From Oscillospiraceae bacterium (lineage in GTDB: Bacteria; Bacillota; Clostridia; Oscillospirales; Oscillospiraceae), in contig JAFPWF010000035.1 of the NCBI GenBank assembly GCA_017395085.1, positions 1 to 43,609 on the forward strand: a DNA stretch of 43,609 nucleotides, in the 5' to 3' direction. Every line of letters begins with the position of its first letter. The first letter of the stretch is position 1. Shown here in pieces: positions 36,210 to 41,346 of the stretch. The notes beneath the pieces are model-generated. The model did no database searches. It was not told the DNA's origin and worked only from the letters and a program-made list of their open reading frames with translations. A program made the position numbers and the translations under genes.

Positions 36210-36821
36210 TCAGGAAGCAATATTTCTGTAGTATTCCGCCAGGGCGGGAATCACTTTCTTGATTTCAAGTCCTGTCGTGTTGATGCAGAGGTCATAGCCC
36301 TCCTTATCTCCCCACTTGTACTCCGAGATGATGTCGTGAAACTCGGCACGGGCTTTGTCGATCCGTTTCATCGCGCGCAGCATTTCACGGTCCGTCAGAT
36401 TCTCCCCTTCTTCCGCACGCTGTTTGCAGCGGTCCAGCTTGGATTGCTCATCGGCATAGACAAAGATTTTAAACGGATTGTACTCTTCGAGGATGGAGTC
36501 GGCGGCACGGCCTACAAACACGCAGTTTCCCTTTTCCGCCAGTTCCTTAATCAGGCTTGTCTGCATCGACATCAGTTTTACCACATCGTTCGGGACAGTA
36601 GGGATCTGGGTGAAACTTCTGGCAAAATGAATGGGAAACTGTGAGAGCGCCCCGGTTTCCGTGCTGTTTGCAAGATACTCTTCGTCCAGACCAGTTTCGG
36701 CAGCAAGTGCCGTAACGATTTCCCGGTCAAAATAGGAAAACCCGAGTGCATCGGCAAGGCGTTTTCCAAGTTCTCTGCCTCCGCTGCCGAATTCACGGCT
36801 TACAGTGATGATGTGACTCAT
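36210..36821 (-). CDS. Cytidylate kinase-like family protein
   Basis: P-loop nucleoside-kinase-like protein of 203 aa. Seen: HIITVSREFGSGGRELGKRL (GSGGRELG replaces a classic GxGKS P-loop), SYFDREIVTALA and NCVFVGRAADSILEE. This matches the cytidylate kinase-like family common in Clostridia rather than Cmk itself, and the substrate is unknown. GAGAGGAG lies 8 nt before ATG. It follows the TIR gene by 73 nt on the same strand; a TATAAT (but no clear -35) and two AGTATTCT direct repeats occur in that gap, so separate transcription is possible. Confidence 0.85.
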   Translation of the reverse strand: MSHIITVSREFGSGGRELGKRLADALGFSYFDREIVTALAAETGLDEEYLANSTETGALSQFPIHFARSFTQIPTVPNDVVKLMSMQTSLIKELAEKGNCVFVGRAADSILEEYNPFKIFVYADEQSKLDRCKQRAEEGENLTDREMLRAMKRIDKARAEFHDIISEYKWGDKEGYDLCINTTGLEIKKVIPALAEYYRNIAS

Positions 36822-36894: not shown

Positions 36895-39800
36895 TCATCC
36901 GCTCTGTTTCGGTTCATAAGCATCCAGCTGGGCCAGTGCCCTCGCTGCAAGTTCCGCAGGACTGTATTCGCTGACAGCCGCCAGATGAAACAACCCTCTC
37001 TCCGTGGAATCAGCAAGACCGGACGGCACCTGCTTCTGTGCTGCCATACTGAACTGCAGCAAAGACTTGTTATCGTTCAGGTTATCCAGAACACACGCCG
37101 CGGAGAAGACCGGGGTGTTCGCATTCCCGTCAAGTGAAATGACGTTCAGATCGGCTCCGCAGTAGAGATAAAGCCTGTCTTCGGTGAAGACATAGCGGAA
37201 ATCCCTTCCGCTGACCATTGCATTCTGCAGGTTAAACGTCAACGGAACACTCCGGATTTCTGTCGTCCCCTGATAGATTCTCAGCCTTTCATCCGGGAAG
37301 ACACAAAAAATCTTCCCAGCATATGCTGTAAATGAAACGGGGTTGTCTCCCGACCATGAGATCTCCGACAGCGGCATTCCTTCCGCCGAGCACGCATAAA
37401 GCTCATGGAGGCCTGCAAACAGCACGGAATCGGCCGATCCGGAGGCACCTCCCGCAAACGCAACAGAACTCAGGTCATGCGGTGTGCCGGGAAGCAGAGT
37501 GACCACGCCGTCGGCGGGACTGACAAGGAGCGCAGCCCGATTCCCGCTTTCCGGATCCGTCGCTGCCGTAAAGAGCAGTTTACCGTCCGGCGAAAGGGCA
37601 AGCGGAGACGGCTTCAGAAAGCCGCGCTCTTCATAGGTCAGGTTGAAAGAGGCCGCTTCTTCGGGGAGCAAGACCGGGATCTCTGTCAGTTCCCCGCTTG
37701 TCAGGCAGAGCCGCCAGATCGAGTTGTCCGACAGATCATGTGCGAAAAGATCCTCTCCGCAAACCGCGACCGGCGACGGCGCCCGGTACATTGCGGTCAG
37801 GAACATTGCCTCCTCGTGAGAATACGGCGCTTTCTGGAGCCCGCTTGCACAATAATAGTCGAAAACCGGAAGCGTCATTTCCCTAACCTGCATCGCCGAG
37901 CCGAGATCAAAGCAGAGGACTGAAAGTTCCCCGGCATCGCCATGAATCCGCATGACATACGCATACTTGTCAATCGCCGTCAGCAGCACGAAAGCATCTT
38001 CCGCAGGCAGATCTGCACGCCCGGTTTGTTCACCGGCGGTTAAATCGTAGAACAGCAGGGTCCTGTCAGACAGCAGTACGGCGTTTTCTCCGCTGCGCAG
38101 AAGGCCCTCCGGCCGCCGGGCGAAGCCGTCATCCGGGAACAGCTGAATATTCTCATCACTGACGCTTTCATAGATGCACAGGTTTCCGGAAGAAAAAACC
38201 GCAAAGCATTCTTCCCCTCTATGGCGGTTCGGAACTGCATCCACACGGCGGATCCCATCCGGAAAAGTCTTTTTTGCCTGAATGATTCCGGACTCCGCCC
38301 AGCCGGTTCCCTGTTCCCCTTGATCTGTAATGAAGCCAAAGGTAGCCTTTCGGATATCCATCAGCTTTACAACATCCTCGCGCAGTTCCAAATAGCCGAT
38401 CGGATTGCCCTGACTGTTAAAGATATAAACACCGTTCCCAAGCGCAAGGAAGATCCGCTTCTCCGATTCCTCCGTCACCTCAAGCACGGGGCTGTCCGCC
38501 AGGGTCCGGGCCCCGATCATCTGTGACCAGAGGAGTTCCTCATTTCGGTAGGCACGCAGTTCAAACGAGATCGGAATCAGCACGGTTGTCCCGTCATGGC
38601 TGTCGGATTCTCCGACTCTGTTGTCTCCCAGCACATAGAGGCAGCCGTCCTGATCGAAGCAGAACGAATCAATGGATCCGAAACTGCAGTCCAGAGTCTG
38701 AAAAGCTCCCGTCTCGATCGTGAATACCCCGATCGAGACCTGATCCTCCCACAGCTTCTTCAGCTTTACGGCAATCCGGCTTCCATCAGCAGACCAGCAA
38801 AGGTCTGTAATATACTGGTCCTTCTCCGGAAGGAGAAGCCCCGCATATGGTACCTGGTCTGTGGTCAAAACCCAGACCGCGTAGGAATCCGCGACGGCGA
38901 TCAGGTCCCCCTGCGGGGAAAGCATTACCGCCCCCAGCGCAGCGTAGTTCATCGGTTCCCGCCACAGAGTTTCTCCGGAACCGTAATCTGCACATACGAC
39001 CTCGCCGCCGGCATAACAGAGAAGCTGACCCGGGATTCCCTCAATCGGAGCAGACGGGACAGTATTCTCCGCCACTCGGAAATGTGACAGCAGTTTCCGC
39101 TCCCGAATATCATAACTGTAGAATTCGCCTGTCTGATCCATACAGACCAGGACGCTCCCGTCACGGCTGATAAAGAACTCCGTAATGTCGCTGTTCAGAT
39201 CCACCCGCCAGGTTTCCAGCATCTGAGAAGGAGTTTCATAGGCGTAGGTAGCCCTGGTCAGAGCAAACTGCGCCTCCTCGGTCACCGGTCGTGCGGGGTC
39301 GTCACCGATCAGGGCCTGCAGCCCATTTGACACCGCTGTCAGGCGATCCTGGTTCTCAAAGGCTTCCAGAGACTCACTTGCCAGAAGTCTTGATTCGCTG
39401 ATCTGTGCCTGACGATAATTCCTGGAAATCTGTGCATTGCTCCAGATCAGATAGGTAATTGCCAGTGCAGCCGCTGCAGCCGCTGCCGTCAGTACCGCTG
39501 CAAGCTTTCTGCGGCGGTACTTCTCCTTCCGCATGACCAGCTCGTCATAACTGCACCCAAGCATCGCAGCGGCAAGGCGGGGCAGTTCAGTCCGTCTAGC
39601 ACTGCGGAAGCTCCCCCGGTAGTCACAGGCAAGCGGTTCCACCGTCTCATCCACAGTCACGATTCTGCCGTCTTCGGCCGTTGCTTCGCGCACTCGATGC
39701 AGCAGCTCAACCGGAAATACCGACGGCGGTTCGCCCGCAGACAGCACACAAAGCACATGATCATGCCCGCGCAGCCTGAGAAACGTCTCCAGTTCGTGAA

Positions 39801-40119
39801 GGCACCAGGGTGATTGGGAATACTCCGGTGAGCAGATGACGATCAGGAATTCCGACGATTCAAGCGCACGCTCGATCCTGCCGGAAAGGTCGGCCGTGAT
39901 TTCCAGTTCCTCCTGGTCGCGGAAAATCCGGTCGATCCGGTCTTTCCCGCTCTTCTTCCGGATACCGGCCGGAAGACGGAAACGTTCCAGACTGTGCTGA
40001 ACCTCCCGTGCAACCAGCGTGTCGTGCAGCGTGCGGCGGTATGAAATAAATGCGTTATACCGGAAGTCCTCAGGGCTACCGGATCCCGCTTTCATTCCAT
40101 TTTCAGGTTCTGCAGTCAT
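36895..40119 (-). CDS. TIR-domain transmembrane protein with C-terminal beta-propellers (1074 aa)
   Basis: Seen: a TIR domain at about 20-150 opening with YNAFISYRRTLHD and holding QSPWCLHELE with E109 at the position of the NADase glutamate of plant and bacterial TIRs. A basic stretch (RKEKYRRRK, 197-205) is followed by one membrane segment (about 206-226) and then a helix SRLLASESLEAFENQDRL. About 780 residues of WD40/PQQ-like blades follow, such as DGSVLVCMDQTGEFYSYD, GDLIAVADSYAVW and DGKLLFTAATD; at least twelve can be picked out. The basic stretch before the membrane segment implies TIR inside, propellers outside. GAGGA lies 9 nt before ATG. It follows thiI by 60 nt on the same strand. 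Role unknown; signalling, NAD cleavage or defence are inferences. Confidence 0.82.
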   Translation of the reverse strand: MTAEPENGMKAGSGSPEDFRYNAFISYRRTLHDTLVAREVQHSLERFRLPAGIRKKSGKDRIDRIFRDQEELEITADLSGRIERALESSEFLIVICSPEYSQSPWCLHELETFLRLRGHDHVLCVLSAGEPPSVFPVELLHRVREATAEDGRIVTVDETVEPLACDYRGSFRSARRTELPRLAAAMLGCSYDELVMRKEKYRRRKLAAVLTAAAAAAALAITYLIWSNAQISRNYRQAQISESRLLASESLEAFENQDRLTAVSNGLQALIGDDPARPVTEEAQFALTRATYAYETPSQMLETWRVDLNSDITEFFISRDGSVLVCMDQTGEFYSYDIRERKLLSHFRVAENTVPSAPIEGIPGQLLCYAGGEVVCADYGSGETLWREPMNYAALGAVMLSPQGDLIAVADSYAVWVLTTDQVPYAGLLLPEKDQYITDLCWSADGSRIAVKLKKLWEDQVSIGVFTIETGAFQTLDCSFGSIDSFCFDQDGCLYVLGDNRVGESDSHDGTTVLIPISFELRAYRNEELLWSQMIGARTLADSPVLEVTEESEKRIFLALGNGVYIFNSQGNPIGYLELREDVVKLMDIRKATFGFITDQGEQGTGWAESGIIQAKKTFPDGIRRVDAVPNRHRGEECFAVFSSGNLCIYESVSDENIQLFPDDGFARRPEGLLRSGENAVLLSDRTLLFYDLTAGEQTGRADLPAEDAFVLLTAIDKYAYVMRIHGDAGELSVLCFDLGSAMQVREMTLPVFDYYCASGLQKAPYSHEEAMFLTAMYRAPSPVAVCGEDLFAHDLSDNSIWRLCLTSGELTEIPVLLPEEAASFNLTYEERGFLKPSPLALSPDGKLLFTAATDPESGNRAALLVSPADGVVTLLPGTPHDLSSVAFAGGASGSADSVLFAGLHELYACSAEGMPLSEISWSGDNPVSFTAYAGKIFCVFPDERLRIYQGTTEIRSVPLTFNLQNAMVSGRDFRYVFTEDRLYLYCGADLNVISLDGNANTPVFSAACVLDNLNDNKSLLQFSMAAQKQVPSGLADSTERGLFHLAAVSEYSPAELAARALAQLDAYEPKQSG

Positions 40120-40179: not shown

Positions 40180-41346
40180 TTAAAGGCGGATTTTTTCTCT
40201 GCCTTCCAGCGCTTCCGAAACGAGGCTCTCCACGTCAAGCGCCGCCTCCGCCTGTTCCACTTCCTGCAACTTCGGGTGTGTTTTCGGATGCCGCGGTGTA
40301 AACACCGTGCAGCAGTCCTCATAAGGCAGAATGGAAGTATCAAAAGTCCCGATTTTACGGGCAAGGCGAACGATTTCCTCCTTGTCCATGCCGACCAGCG
40401 GCTGCAGCACGGGAAGCTCCGTCACGGCCTGTGTCACGGCCATTGCCTCCATCGTCTGGCTGGCAACCTGGCCGAGATTCTCCCCTGTCACGATTGCTTT
40501 CGCCCCTGTCTGAAGGGCAATCGCCTCGGCGATGCGCATCATGAACCGGCGCATGATCAGGGTGAAGAACTCTTCCGGGCACTTATCGCGAATTTCCTCC
40601 TGAATGTGCGTGAAGGGCACCACTTCCAGAATCATATCTCCGCACCAAGGCGTCAGGAGACGGCCGAGTTCAATGACTTTTTCCTTCGCCTGCTGTGAGG
40701 TGTACGGGAAGGAGAAGAAGTGCACCGGAATCTGGCGGACGCCGCGTTTTGCGATCATCCAGGTGGATACCGGGCTGTCGATTCCGCCTGAAAGCAGCGA
40801 AACCGCCGTTCCATTTGAGCCCACCGGCATTCCCCCCGCCCCGTCTACCGGTGCGGCATGCACATAGGCTGCCAGATCACGCACTTCCACATTTACGATC
40901 AGTTCCGGATCATGCACATCGACCACACAGTCCGGATAAGCATCCGAAAGGGCGCTTCCGACTGACTGGCTGAGCTGAATGCTTGTCATCGGGAAGCGTT
41001 TGTCGCTGCGTTTGGATTCCACTTTGAAGCTCTTTGCGCGGAGCATGTCGTCCTTCAGGTAATCGATAGCGAGTCCGGCGATCGCGTCGGCGTTCTTTTC
41101 ACATGCTGCCGCCCGGCTGATTTTCACGACGCCGAACACGTCCTGCATGGCTGCAAAGGCCGCATCCATGTCCGCATCTTCCGAAAGCGGCTCCACATAA
41201 ATGGTCGACTGCATGCAGCTGACCTGAAACTCACCCAACCCGAGCAGCCGTCTGCGGACATTGCCCACCAGTTTCTGTTCAAAGCTGCGGCGATTCAGTC
41301 CTTTCAGGACGACTTCGCCGAGCTTCAGGAGAATAATCTCGTTCAT
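40180..41346 (-). CDS. thiI: tRNA 4-thiouridine synthase ThiI
   Basis: Adenylates tRNA U8 and transfers sulfur for s4U; also linked to thiamine thiazole synthesis. Seen: N-terminal ferredoxin-like region with EVVLKGLNRRSFEQ, a THUMP domain (about 60-170), the PP-loop SLLSGGIDSPVSTWM, and a downstream ENLGQVASQT. 388 aa, without the C-terminal rhodanese domain of E. coli ThiI, as usual in Gram-positives. Those depend on a cysteine desulfurase usually encoded next to thiI; none is in this window. ATG 41346 is preceded by AGGAG. Confidence 0.95.
   Translation of the reverse strand: MNEIILLKLGEVVLKGLNRRSFEQKLVGNVRRRLLGLGEFQVSCMQSTIYVEPLSEDADMDAAFAAMQDVFGVVKISRAAACEKNADAIAGLAIDYLKDDMLRAKSFKVESKRSDKRFPMTSIQLSQSVGSALSDAYPDCVVDVHDPELIVNVEVRDLAAYVHAAPVDGAGGMPVGSNGTAVSLLSGGIDSPVSTWMIAKRGVRQIPVHFFSFPYTSQQAKEKVIELGRLLTPWCGDMILEVVPFTHIQEEIRDKCPEEFFTLIMRRFMMRIAEAIALQTGAKAIVTGENLGQVASQTMEAMAVTQAVTELPVLQPLVGMDKEEIVRLARKIGTFDTSILPYEDCCTVFTPRHPKTHPKLQEVEQAEAALDVESLVSEALEGREKIRL

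What the first reader, a model, noticed from the sequence alone, without database searches (positions are those of the whole stretch)
36895..40119. Single-pass TIR receptor-like protein with an extracellular double propeller
Seen: N-terminal TIR with the SPWCxxE glutamate, a basic stop, one membrane helix and about 780 residues of propeller blades. By the positive-inside rule the TIR is cytoplasmic and the propellers face outside. That is the reverse order but the same logic as Toll receptors: ectodomain, membrane, TIR. Known: bacterial TIRs are mostly soluble NADases of defence systems. It sits alone after thiI with no Thoeris-type partner, so a one-protein sensor-effector is possible.
Basis: partly seen in the sequence, partly recalled or inferred. 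Interest (0 to 1): 0.8.

Follow-up and report, generated by a model that had tools for sequence, protein, structure and literature searches.

The report
Bacterial membrane TIR receptor-like protein
A gut bacterium encodes a protein laid out like a reversed Toll receptor (an enzyme-type TIR domain inside the cell, one membrane helix, a large two-propeller sensor predicted outside), and relatives of it tend to occur with membrane proteins, some of them potassium channels, that end in a ryanodine-receptor-like domain, which suggests that an outside cue is turned into an NAD-derived signal acting on a channel.

Summary
The gene is real, but on the minus strand: 1074 aa, TIR 21-187, one unbroken helix 191-255 (membrane span 206-226 plus stalk), then WD40-like tandem propellers 299-1050. 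Glu109 is kept in 106 of 113 aligned TIRs. TIR-inside/propeller-outside is supported: K/R are richer before the span in 44 of 44 rows, and the same span-stalk-propeller unit also occurs on Ser/Thr kinases. TIR is conserved, propeller diverges (59-71% against 29-39%). 'No partner' holds for this locus only. In a 120-genome Lachnospiraceae sample, 13 of 14 genomes with a TIR-span gene have one within 2.2 kb of a DHH phosphoesterase (10) or RyR-domain membrane protein (3). All 17 tested genomes with near relatives hold the RyR family, 12 its K+-channel kind; this genome holds both kinds on another contig. Best reading: a membrane TIR receptor whose NAD-derived signal acts on RyR-domain channels. 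Architecture is well supported; activity, ligand and gating are inferred; defence or other signalling is open. Ten searches of one open-access library found no description of the combination.

The parts
36895..40119 (-). TIR-TM-double propeller gene, 1074 aa (stop codon included); GAGGAA ribosome-site-like letters just upstream (by eye)
39550..40062 (-). TIR domain, residues 20-190
   Evidence: Pfam TIR_2 and TIR over cut-off; AlphaFold2 TIR-only model pLDDT 90.2, Foldseek to RPP1, MyD88, RUN1, TLR1, AbTir
39793..39795 (-). codon of Glu109, the TIR catalytic glutamate position
   Evidence: E in 106 of 113 aligned TIRs; invariant in the 44-row and 27-row alignments; aligned with the Glu of plant WCLxEL TIRs
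39505..39531 (-). basic stop RKEKYRRRK, residues 197-205, predicted cytoplasmic flank of the span
39442..39504 (-). single membrane span, residues 206-226
   Evidence: K/R before more than after in 44 of 44 rows; hydropathy peak 2.1 at 207; inside one helix 191-255
39247..39441 (-). juxtamembrane helical stalk, residues 227-291
   Evidence: helices 191-255, 259-270, 281-291; start of the ectodomain stretch (about 231-345) that most often still aligns in distant relatives
36970..39225 (-). tandem WD40-like propellers, residues 299-1050, predicted outside the cell
36916..36960 (-). C-terminal helix, residues 1054-1068
40180..41346 (-). neighbour thiI (not part of the system)
   Evidence: Pfam ThiI 1e-66
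36210..36821 (-). neighbour cytidylate-kinase-like gene (not part of the system)
   Evidence: Pfam Cytidylate_kin2 6e-41

Best explanation
It is a single-pass membrane receptor of a TIR nucleotide-signalling system. The double propeller outside the cell meets a ligand at the cell surface (inferred), the helical stalk and span pass this on by bringing TIR domains together (inferred), and the cytoplasmic TIR, whose Trp105 and Glu109 are intact (shown by alignment), cleaves NAD+ to an ADP-ribose-type signal such as a cADPR isomer (inferred from TIR enzymes). The signal binds the C-terminal RyR-like domain of membrane proteins encoded elsewhere in the genome, one of them a K+ channel (genetic linkage shown in relatives, binding inferred), and changes K+ flow, arresting or protecting the cell. 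In many Lachnospiraceae relatives a DHH phosphoesterase takes the partner place, probably removing or tuning the signal. Confidence by step: architecture and topology about 0.85; active TIR about 0.75; RyR channel as the output about 0.5; defence rather than other signalling about 0.5.
For: Fold. Topology: K/R 6.1 before against 2.5 after the span, 44 of 44 rows; the span-stalk-propeller unit is found on Hanks kinases (4 of 4 scanned have Pkinase, E 1.3e-31 to 1.6e-38) and on a kinase-TIR fusion. Active TIR: Glu109 in 106 of 113, the 7 losses all in one class of short partner proteins; best sequence and structure matches include NADase-type plant TIRs and AbTir, but also TLR and MyD88 TIRs. 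Receptor-like divergence: TIR 59-71% against ectodomain 29-39% identity to the six full-length orthologues. RyR link: RyR membrane proteins within 3 kb of a TIR-span gene in 14 of the 32 fetched loci that hold them (L133 lies inside L163 and is counted twice), plus two beside TIR-LRR genes (L179, L184); 5 nt upstream of the orthologue in L054, and 15-nt overlaps in L066 and L067. Six of these 16 loci hold a protein with the K+ filter, the rest only the filterless kind. Family present in 17 of 17 genomes with near relatives (1e-8; best hit of each at most 1.9e-90) against 8 of 145 in the family of one of them (1e-20) and 21 of 120 in a Lachnospiraceae sample (1e-8); in the window's genus 8 of 12 TIR genomes against 1 of 25 others, p 1e-4 (strong hits only, the weak G013 hit dropped). 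RyR-domain proteins of phages bind or cleave 2'/3'cADPR (PMC13232231, passages read). DHH link: in 10 of 10 sampled genomes with both genes they are close neighbours.
Against: No activity, ligand or localisation is measured. In this genome the RyR genes lie on another contig (draft of 86 contigs) with no TIR gene in the fetched stretches; in the window's own genus 0 of 9 regions fetched for RyR (8, plus L163) showed a TIR gene by these scans, though L047, fetched for its TIR pair, has both. RyR matches are mostly below Pfam's cut-off (E 6e-3 to 5e-6; L155 passes), so 'RyR' rests also on the conserved EHxxW...H pattern. 5 of the 17 genomes show no full-length K+-channel kind. Counts are not phylogenetically independent (near-copies such as L186-L188; both labels cluster on the tree). 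Genomes with this gene also have other TIR genes, and the RyR genes in them sit beside those, not beside this one, except in L054, so the channel may answer to those. Cysteine is not depleted in the ectodomain (1.66% against 1.70%). 14 of 112 relatives have no segment over the hydropathy threshold.
Confidence: 0.5

Rival explanations
1. Same receptor, but ordinary cell-envelope or environment signalling, not defence: the TIR makes a reversible second messenger in answer to a nutrient, surface or envelope cue, as the kinase versions phosphorylate in answer to theirs.
For: The same span-stalk-propeller unit carries Hanks kinases, with PP2C-like neighbours by eye. The scanned window neighbours are housekeeping or transport (DNA polymerase III, GcpE, Clp-type ATPase, FtsX, thiI), no defence family among 17. 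A phosphoesterase neighbour suggests a signal that is switched off. PADLOC gives P0001 only one weak partial match (E 2.5e-5) and NCBIfam nothing near cut-off. No match in 50,697 phage records.
Against: Ectodomain divergence, patchy presence (13 of 60 genomes, its own included), spread across Clostridia- and Erysipelotrichaceae-named lineages (tree) and tandem copies (L100, L107, L113, L121, L124) look like conflict genes. TIR cADPR signals known in bacteria serve immunity (PMC13232231 passages).
Confidence: 0.3
2. Stand-alone abortive-infection NADase: the receptor itself depletes NAD+ when triggered and needs no partner.
For: No partner at this locus, and orthologues L053, L055-L057 and L061 have no DHH or RyR gene directly beside them. 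Some bacterial TIRs deplete NAD+ alone (recalled).
Against: 13 of 14 sampled Lachnospiraceae genomes with TIR-span genes have a DHH or RyR gene close to one; 17 of 17 near-relative genomes carry the RyR family.
Confidence: 0.12
3. Inverted or peripheral topology: propellers in the cytoplasm and the helix an anchor or coiled coil, with the protein a cytoplasmic WD40-TIR scaffold.
For: Ectodomain cysteines are not depleted; the span of the window protein is alanine-rich; 14 of 112 relatives fall under the hydropathy threshold. Bacterial TIRs with WD40 repeats and a nucleotide-binding domain are known (PMC9153377 passages).
Against: 44 of 44 charge bias; kinase versions; a sister TIR-span protein ends in a Pro/Thr-rich wall-type tail (L002, by eye).
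Confidence: 0.06
4. Non-enzymatic TIR acting as an assembly adaptor, as in animal TLRs.
For: Foldseek ranks MyD88 and TLR1 TIRs high.
Against: Trp105 and Glu109 are invariant in 44 rows, and loss of Glu is confined to the short partner class; animal TLR TIRs are not kept for catalysis (recalled).
Confidence: 0.12

Closest known systems
Thoeris (TIR ThsB plus ThsA effector)
   Same: TIR that makes an ADP-ribose-type signal acting on a separate effector (here inferred)
   Different: Membrane receptor instead of soluble ThsB; no ThsA partner beside it; candidate effector is an RyR-domain membrane protein or K+ channel
Animal Toll-like receptors
   Same: Ectodomain, one span, cytoplasmic TIR
   Different: Reversed order (TIR N-terminal), propellers instead of LRR here (LRR in sister proteins L179, L184, L003), catalytic Glu kept
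Bacterial Ser/Thr kinases with an extracellular propeller or PASTA sensor
   Same: Cytoplasmic enzyme, span, sensor; the same stalk-propeller unit occurs on kinases here; kinase-propeller fusions are mentioned in print (PMC7159879 passages)
   Different: TIR in place of the kinase
Animal cADPR and ryanodine receptor signalling; phage RyDEP proteins
   Same: RyR domain as a reader of cADPR-type nucleotides (PMC13232231, passages)
   Different: RyR at the C-terminus of a bacterial K+ channel or membrane protein, linked to TIR receptors
TIR/WD40 and STAND conflict proteins of bacteria (PMC8195603 and PMC9153377, passages)
   Same: TIR and repeat modules in immune-like proteins; prokaryotic TIRs with a short transmembrane region are mentioned
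   Different: No NTPase, large propeller beyond a membrane span

Membership tests
TIR domain NADase | TIR fold | tested here: met
TIR domain NADase | catalytic Glu in the WxxxE position | tested here: met
   Glu109; 106 of 113 aligned TIRs, aligned with plant TIRs
TIR domain NADase | NAD+ cleavage | not testable with these tools
   needs a biochemical test
Thoeris | ThsB-type TIR at trusted score | tested here: not met
   ThsB_TIR 15.8 bits, cut-off 21.2; no ThsB hit in PADLOC for P0001; some relatives do pass ThsB_TIR
Thoeris | adjacent ThsA (SIR2/SLOG or macro) effector | tested here: not met
   neighbours are thiI and a cytidylate-kinase-like gene; ThsA was not searched for elsewhere in the genome
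Toll-like receptor | extracellular LRR, span, C-terminal cytoplasmic TIR | tested here: not met
   TIR N-terminal, ectodomain is propeller
Toll-like receptor (works like) | single span with TIR inside and sensor outside | tested here: inconclusive
   predicted; not measured
RyR-domain K+ channel (proposed partner, G000:C74) | K+ pore with TVGYGD filter (filter motif recalled) | tested here: met
   Ion_trans_2 6e-16 and TVGYGD
RyR-domain K+ channel (proposed partner, G000:C74) | RyR domain PF02026 | tested here: inconclusive
   22-25 bits, cut-off 27.4; relative L155 passes with 35.2
RyR-domain K+ channel (proposed partner, G000:C74) | adjacent to the TIR gene | tested here: not met
   different contig; no TIR in the fetched neighbourhood

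The most novel reading that the evidence does not exclude
Gut Bacillota carry a Toll-like surface-receptor system: cytoplasmic catalytic TIR, one span and exchangeable ectodomains (double propeller, LRR, TPR), signalling through an NAD-derived nucleotide to RyR-domain membrane proteins and K+ channels, with a DHH phosphoesterase as the partner in a second branch. This would be a bacterial counterpart of both Toll-type surface sensing and cADPR-ryanodine-receptor channel control, within one pathway.
Probability: 0.4. Interest if true: 0.92.

Novelty: new variant of a known kind. Interest (0 to 1): 0.77.

Why it matters
Bacterial TIR immunity is mostly known as soluble, intracellular sensing. 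A widespread membrane class with extracellular sensors would mean that bacteria can start TIR nucleotide signalling from the surface, before or without entry. The link to RyR-domain membrane proteins and K+ channels makes an old question testable: whether the RyR repeat is an ancient reader of cADPR-type signals that gates ion channels. It also gives a direct comparison with Toll receptors, since TIR-span-LRR proteins occur in the same genomes.

Tried and rejected
Rejected: Thoeris membership (ThsB_TIR below cut-off, no ThsA beside it). Rejected: degenerate TIR pocket. Rejected: phage or plasmid cargo (no phage record at 1e-5; 11 plasmid records, none covering 80% of the query, the best a Butyrivibrio TIR protein at 41.5% over 17%). 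Rejected as a partner here: DHH phosphoesterase (0 hits in this genome at 1e-10). thiI, the cytidylate-kinase-like gene and the 642-aa membrane gene are taken as chance neighbours: BLASTP of the three at 1e-8 found no copy among the kept ORFs of the 98 loci. Cysteine depletion as a topology test gave nothing. Viral contigs and metagenome scans were not run. The 745-aa protein upstream of the C80 TIR genes looked HD plus RyR by eye; Pfam gave RyR E 0.002 for its C-terminal piece and nothing at 0.01 for the whole, so it stays a lead. For one search I left out L062 by oversight (17 of the 18 nearest). In L172 and L183 my longest-ORF rule showed no RyR ORF although searches had one there. The output was cut, so parts of L154-L156 were not seen there (L154 and L155 are covered, L156).

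Literature: ten searches of the open-access PMC library. Passages only were read of eight papers: PMC8195603, PMC9153377, PMC13232231, PMC10022894, PMC7075850, PMC8635717, PMC10907252, PMC7159879; all others were seen as listings. None of these described TIR-span-propeller proteins or a TIR with RyR channels; mentions prokaryotic TIRs with short transmembrane regions and bacterial N-terminal TIRs with TPRs. A 2015 paper and a 2020 paper on nucleotide-based conflict systems and a 2025 preprint on TIR systems were not held. Absence from print is therefore weakly shown.
Full report
OBSERVATION. The gene is on the minus strand, 40119 to 36895, ATG start with GAGGAA just upstream. The product, 1074 aa, matches Pfam TIR_2 (24-128, 5e-10) and TIR (1e-7), both over cut-off, and ANAPC4_WD40 over cut-off for the whole protein. 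AlphaFold2 on a 44-row alignment gives pLDDT 87.4: TIR 21-187, an unbroken helix 191-255, short helices to 291, all-beta 299-1050 and a C-terminal helix. Foldseek's best matches include tandem WD40 proteins (Pwp2, Utp21) and Apaf-1, at low whole-query TM-scores (0.19-0.31), so two propellers are a fold-level reading. A TIR-only model (pLDDT 90.2) matches RPP1, MyD88, RUN1, TLR1, SPARTA TIR, AbTir and EcThsB.

TOPOLOGY. In the 44 rows (window protein included) the 15 residues before the span hold on average 6.1 K/R, the 15 after it 2.5, and before exceeds after in 44 of 44. A control that I did not expect: a profile search of 120 genomes drawn evenly from the family of G066 (a Roseburia-named MAG, Lachnospiraceae) gave seven rows that match only from about position 180 onward. 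All seven regions were fetched. Kinase-like N-termini were seen by eye in all seven (in L150 kinase and propeller are separate frames), and four of four scanned have Pkinase at 1.3e-31 to 1.6e-38. So the span-stalk-propeller unit is used by cytoplasmic kinases too, and L153 is kinase-TIR-span-propeller. This fits an enzyme inside and a propeller outside. Against: cysteine is not depleted in the ectodomain (1.66% against 1.70%), and 14 of 112 relatives have no segment over the hydropathy threshold.

TIR. Glu109 is present in 106 of 113 aligned TIRs and Trp105 in 103 of 113; the seven without Glu109 are the seven short (271-300 aa) TIR-span proteins encoded next to TIR-span-TPR genes in that set. 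So a TIR with the Glu is paired there with a degenerate one, also in this genome (C2, L045). Sequence searches of the PDB give plant TIRs first (AT1G72930, L6, Roq1), then a bacterial TIR protein, TcpB, TLRs and AbTir; the Glu aligns with the plant WCLxEL Glu. NAD+ cleavage is inferred, not shown.

DIVERGENCE. Against six full-length orthologues (L053-L057, L061) the TIR is 59-71% identical and the ectodomain 29-39%; in most others the TIR is near 38-54% while mainly the stalk and first blade (about 231-345) align. The orthologue clade (8 of 113 rows, support 100/98) joins the window protein, an Oscillospiraceae-named MAG and Erysipelotrichaceae-named MAGs, so horizontal transfer is likely. 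The window's genus includes a sheep-rumen MAG named Oscillospiraceae (L035 and L114 come from contigs of equal length and are identical in the TIR).

PARTNER 1, DHH. Among 98 loci a ~500-aa DHH-DHHA1 protein lies within 4 kb of the TIR gene in 26, mostly directly beside it. Pfam gives DHH at 1e-12 to 1e-16 in the four scanned, and DNPDAD, DHH and GGGH are invariant in 17 of 17 rows; order and strand vary. In the 120-genome sample TIR-span genes with the TIR part occur in 14 genomes, DHH-500 in 20, both in 10 (p 1.1e-6), and in 10 of 10 the two are close (nine within 90 nt, one at 1.6 kb). G066 is the sample's centre and G071 and G082 were known before; without these three it is 11, 17 and 7 (p 9e-5). 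In 47 genomes picked for the TIR gene, 43 have a match at 1e-40 (one, G062, only a short relative), so in about 16 of 42 the DHH gene is not within 4 kb. This genome has none.

PARTNER 2, RyR PROTEINS. The gene 5 nt upstream of the orthologue in L054 encodes a membrane protein ending in an RyR-like domain. A profile of this family found two kinds, often in tandem: a K+ channel (Ion_trans_2 3e-13 to 6e-16 in three of three scanned, TVGYGD) ending in RyR, and a filterless membrane protein, mostly 600-650 aa, ending in RyR. RyR scores are weak singly (E 6e-3 to 1.5e-8), but E-H-x-x-W and a later H are invariant in 11 of 11 rows. Within 3 kb of a TIR-span gene they occur in 14 of 32 loci that hold them (L133 and L163 are one place), and two more (L179, L184) lie beside TIR-LRR genes (LRR_4 1e-36 and 2e-30, TIR_2 4e-22 and 4e-21). 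Six of these 16 loci hold the K+-filter kind. Some loci had been fetched for the TIR. In the 25 regions fetched for RyR alone (L163, L167-L190) it is 8 of 25, against about 3% expected for a random gene with eight TIR genes in 2.5 Mb (rough arithmetic). L186-L188 are near-copies, as are L175 and L189.

CO-OCCURRENCE. In that sample 5 of the 9 strong and 6 of all 21 also have the TIR-span gene (p 0.001 and 0.017). In the window's genus: 9 of 37 have it strongly, 12 of 37 have a TIR-span gene, 8 both (p 1e-4). In the Lachnospiraceae sample 13 of 14 TIR-span genomes have a DHH (10) or RyR (3; one at 2.1 kb) gene close by; one (G130, the kinase-TIR) has neither. G110, G082 and G193 have both a DHH neighbour and an RyR gene further away. 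On the TIR tree both labels are clustered (3 changes against 16 shuffled), so species are not independent points. Against: this genome's RyR genes (contig C74) have no TIR in the fetched stretches, nor do the seven own-genus regions of the other genomes; of the genus only L047, fetched for its TIR pair, shows both.

MECHANISM. A phage study reports that RyR-domain proteins bind or cleave 2'- and 3'cADPR, the products of Thoeris TIRs (PMC13232231, passages). With the linkage above, the simplest chain is: surface cue, TIR clustering, cADPR-type signal, RyR-domain membrane protein and K+ channel; in the other branch a DHH enzyme that degrades or tunes the signal. Shown: parts, predicted fold, linkage. 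Inferred: ligand, enzyme product, gating, purpose. Kinase-swapped relatives and the housekeeping setting keep a non-defence role open.

KNOWN OR NEW. It is not Thoeris by membership (two features not met) and not a Toll-like receptor by membership, though it is laid out like one. PADLOC gives one weak partial match and NCBIfam nothing near cut-off for the proteins scanned. Ten searches of one open-access library and passages of eight papers gave no description of the combination; proteins of this kind are annotated in bulk as TIR domain-containing.

Noticed in passing
G000:C80 (L003, L162): Cluster of TIR-span genes with LRR ectodomains: 386 aa with TIR_2 5e-18 plus LRR_4 5e-10, a 1021-aa protein with LRR_4 4e-21 and a degenerate TIR-like N-terminus (by eye), preceded by a 745-aa protein with an HD-like motif (by eye) and a weak RyR match.
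   Followed up: partly
G000:C2 (L045:7262-10215); same in L042, L043, L046, L047, L048, L049: Gene pair: short TIR-span protein without the catalytic Glu (7 of 7) directly upstream of a TIR-span-TPR protein that keeps it.
   Followed up: partly
26 of the loci L069-L132; L156-L161: About 500-aa DHH-DHHA1 phosphoesterase with a conserved C-terminal part near TIR-span-propeller genes of Lachnospiraceae; no NCBIfam equivalog at cut-off.
   Followed up: yes
L145-L151: Ser/Thr kinase-span-stalk-propeller proteins sharing the ectodomain of the TIR family, several beside PP2C-like, prepilin-peptidase-like and large secreted genes (by eye).
   Followed up: partly
L153:3687-7997: Kinase-TIR-span-propeller fusion, 1437 aa.
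   Followed up: partly
L179:4229-6379 and L184:8008-10041: TIR-span-LRR proteins (the domain set of a Toll receptor, reversed; span by eye) next to RyR membrane protein genes.
   Followed up: partly
L051:5465-8806: TIR protein with a long array of YD-like repeats after the basic stretch, 1114 aa (by eye).
   Followed up: no
G000:C19 (L002, L164:5121-6176): TIR-span protein ending in a Pro/Thr-rich wall-type tail (by eye).
   Followed up: no
L186-L188: An 880-888-aa secreted-looking protein lies between the RyR membrane gene and the TIR pair.
   Followed up: no
L100, L107, L113, L121, L124: Two or three TIR-span-propeller genes in tandem.
   Followed up: no
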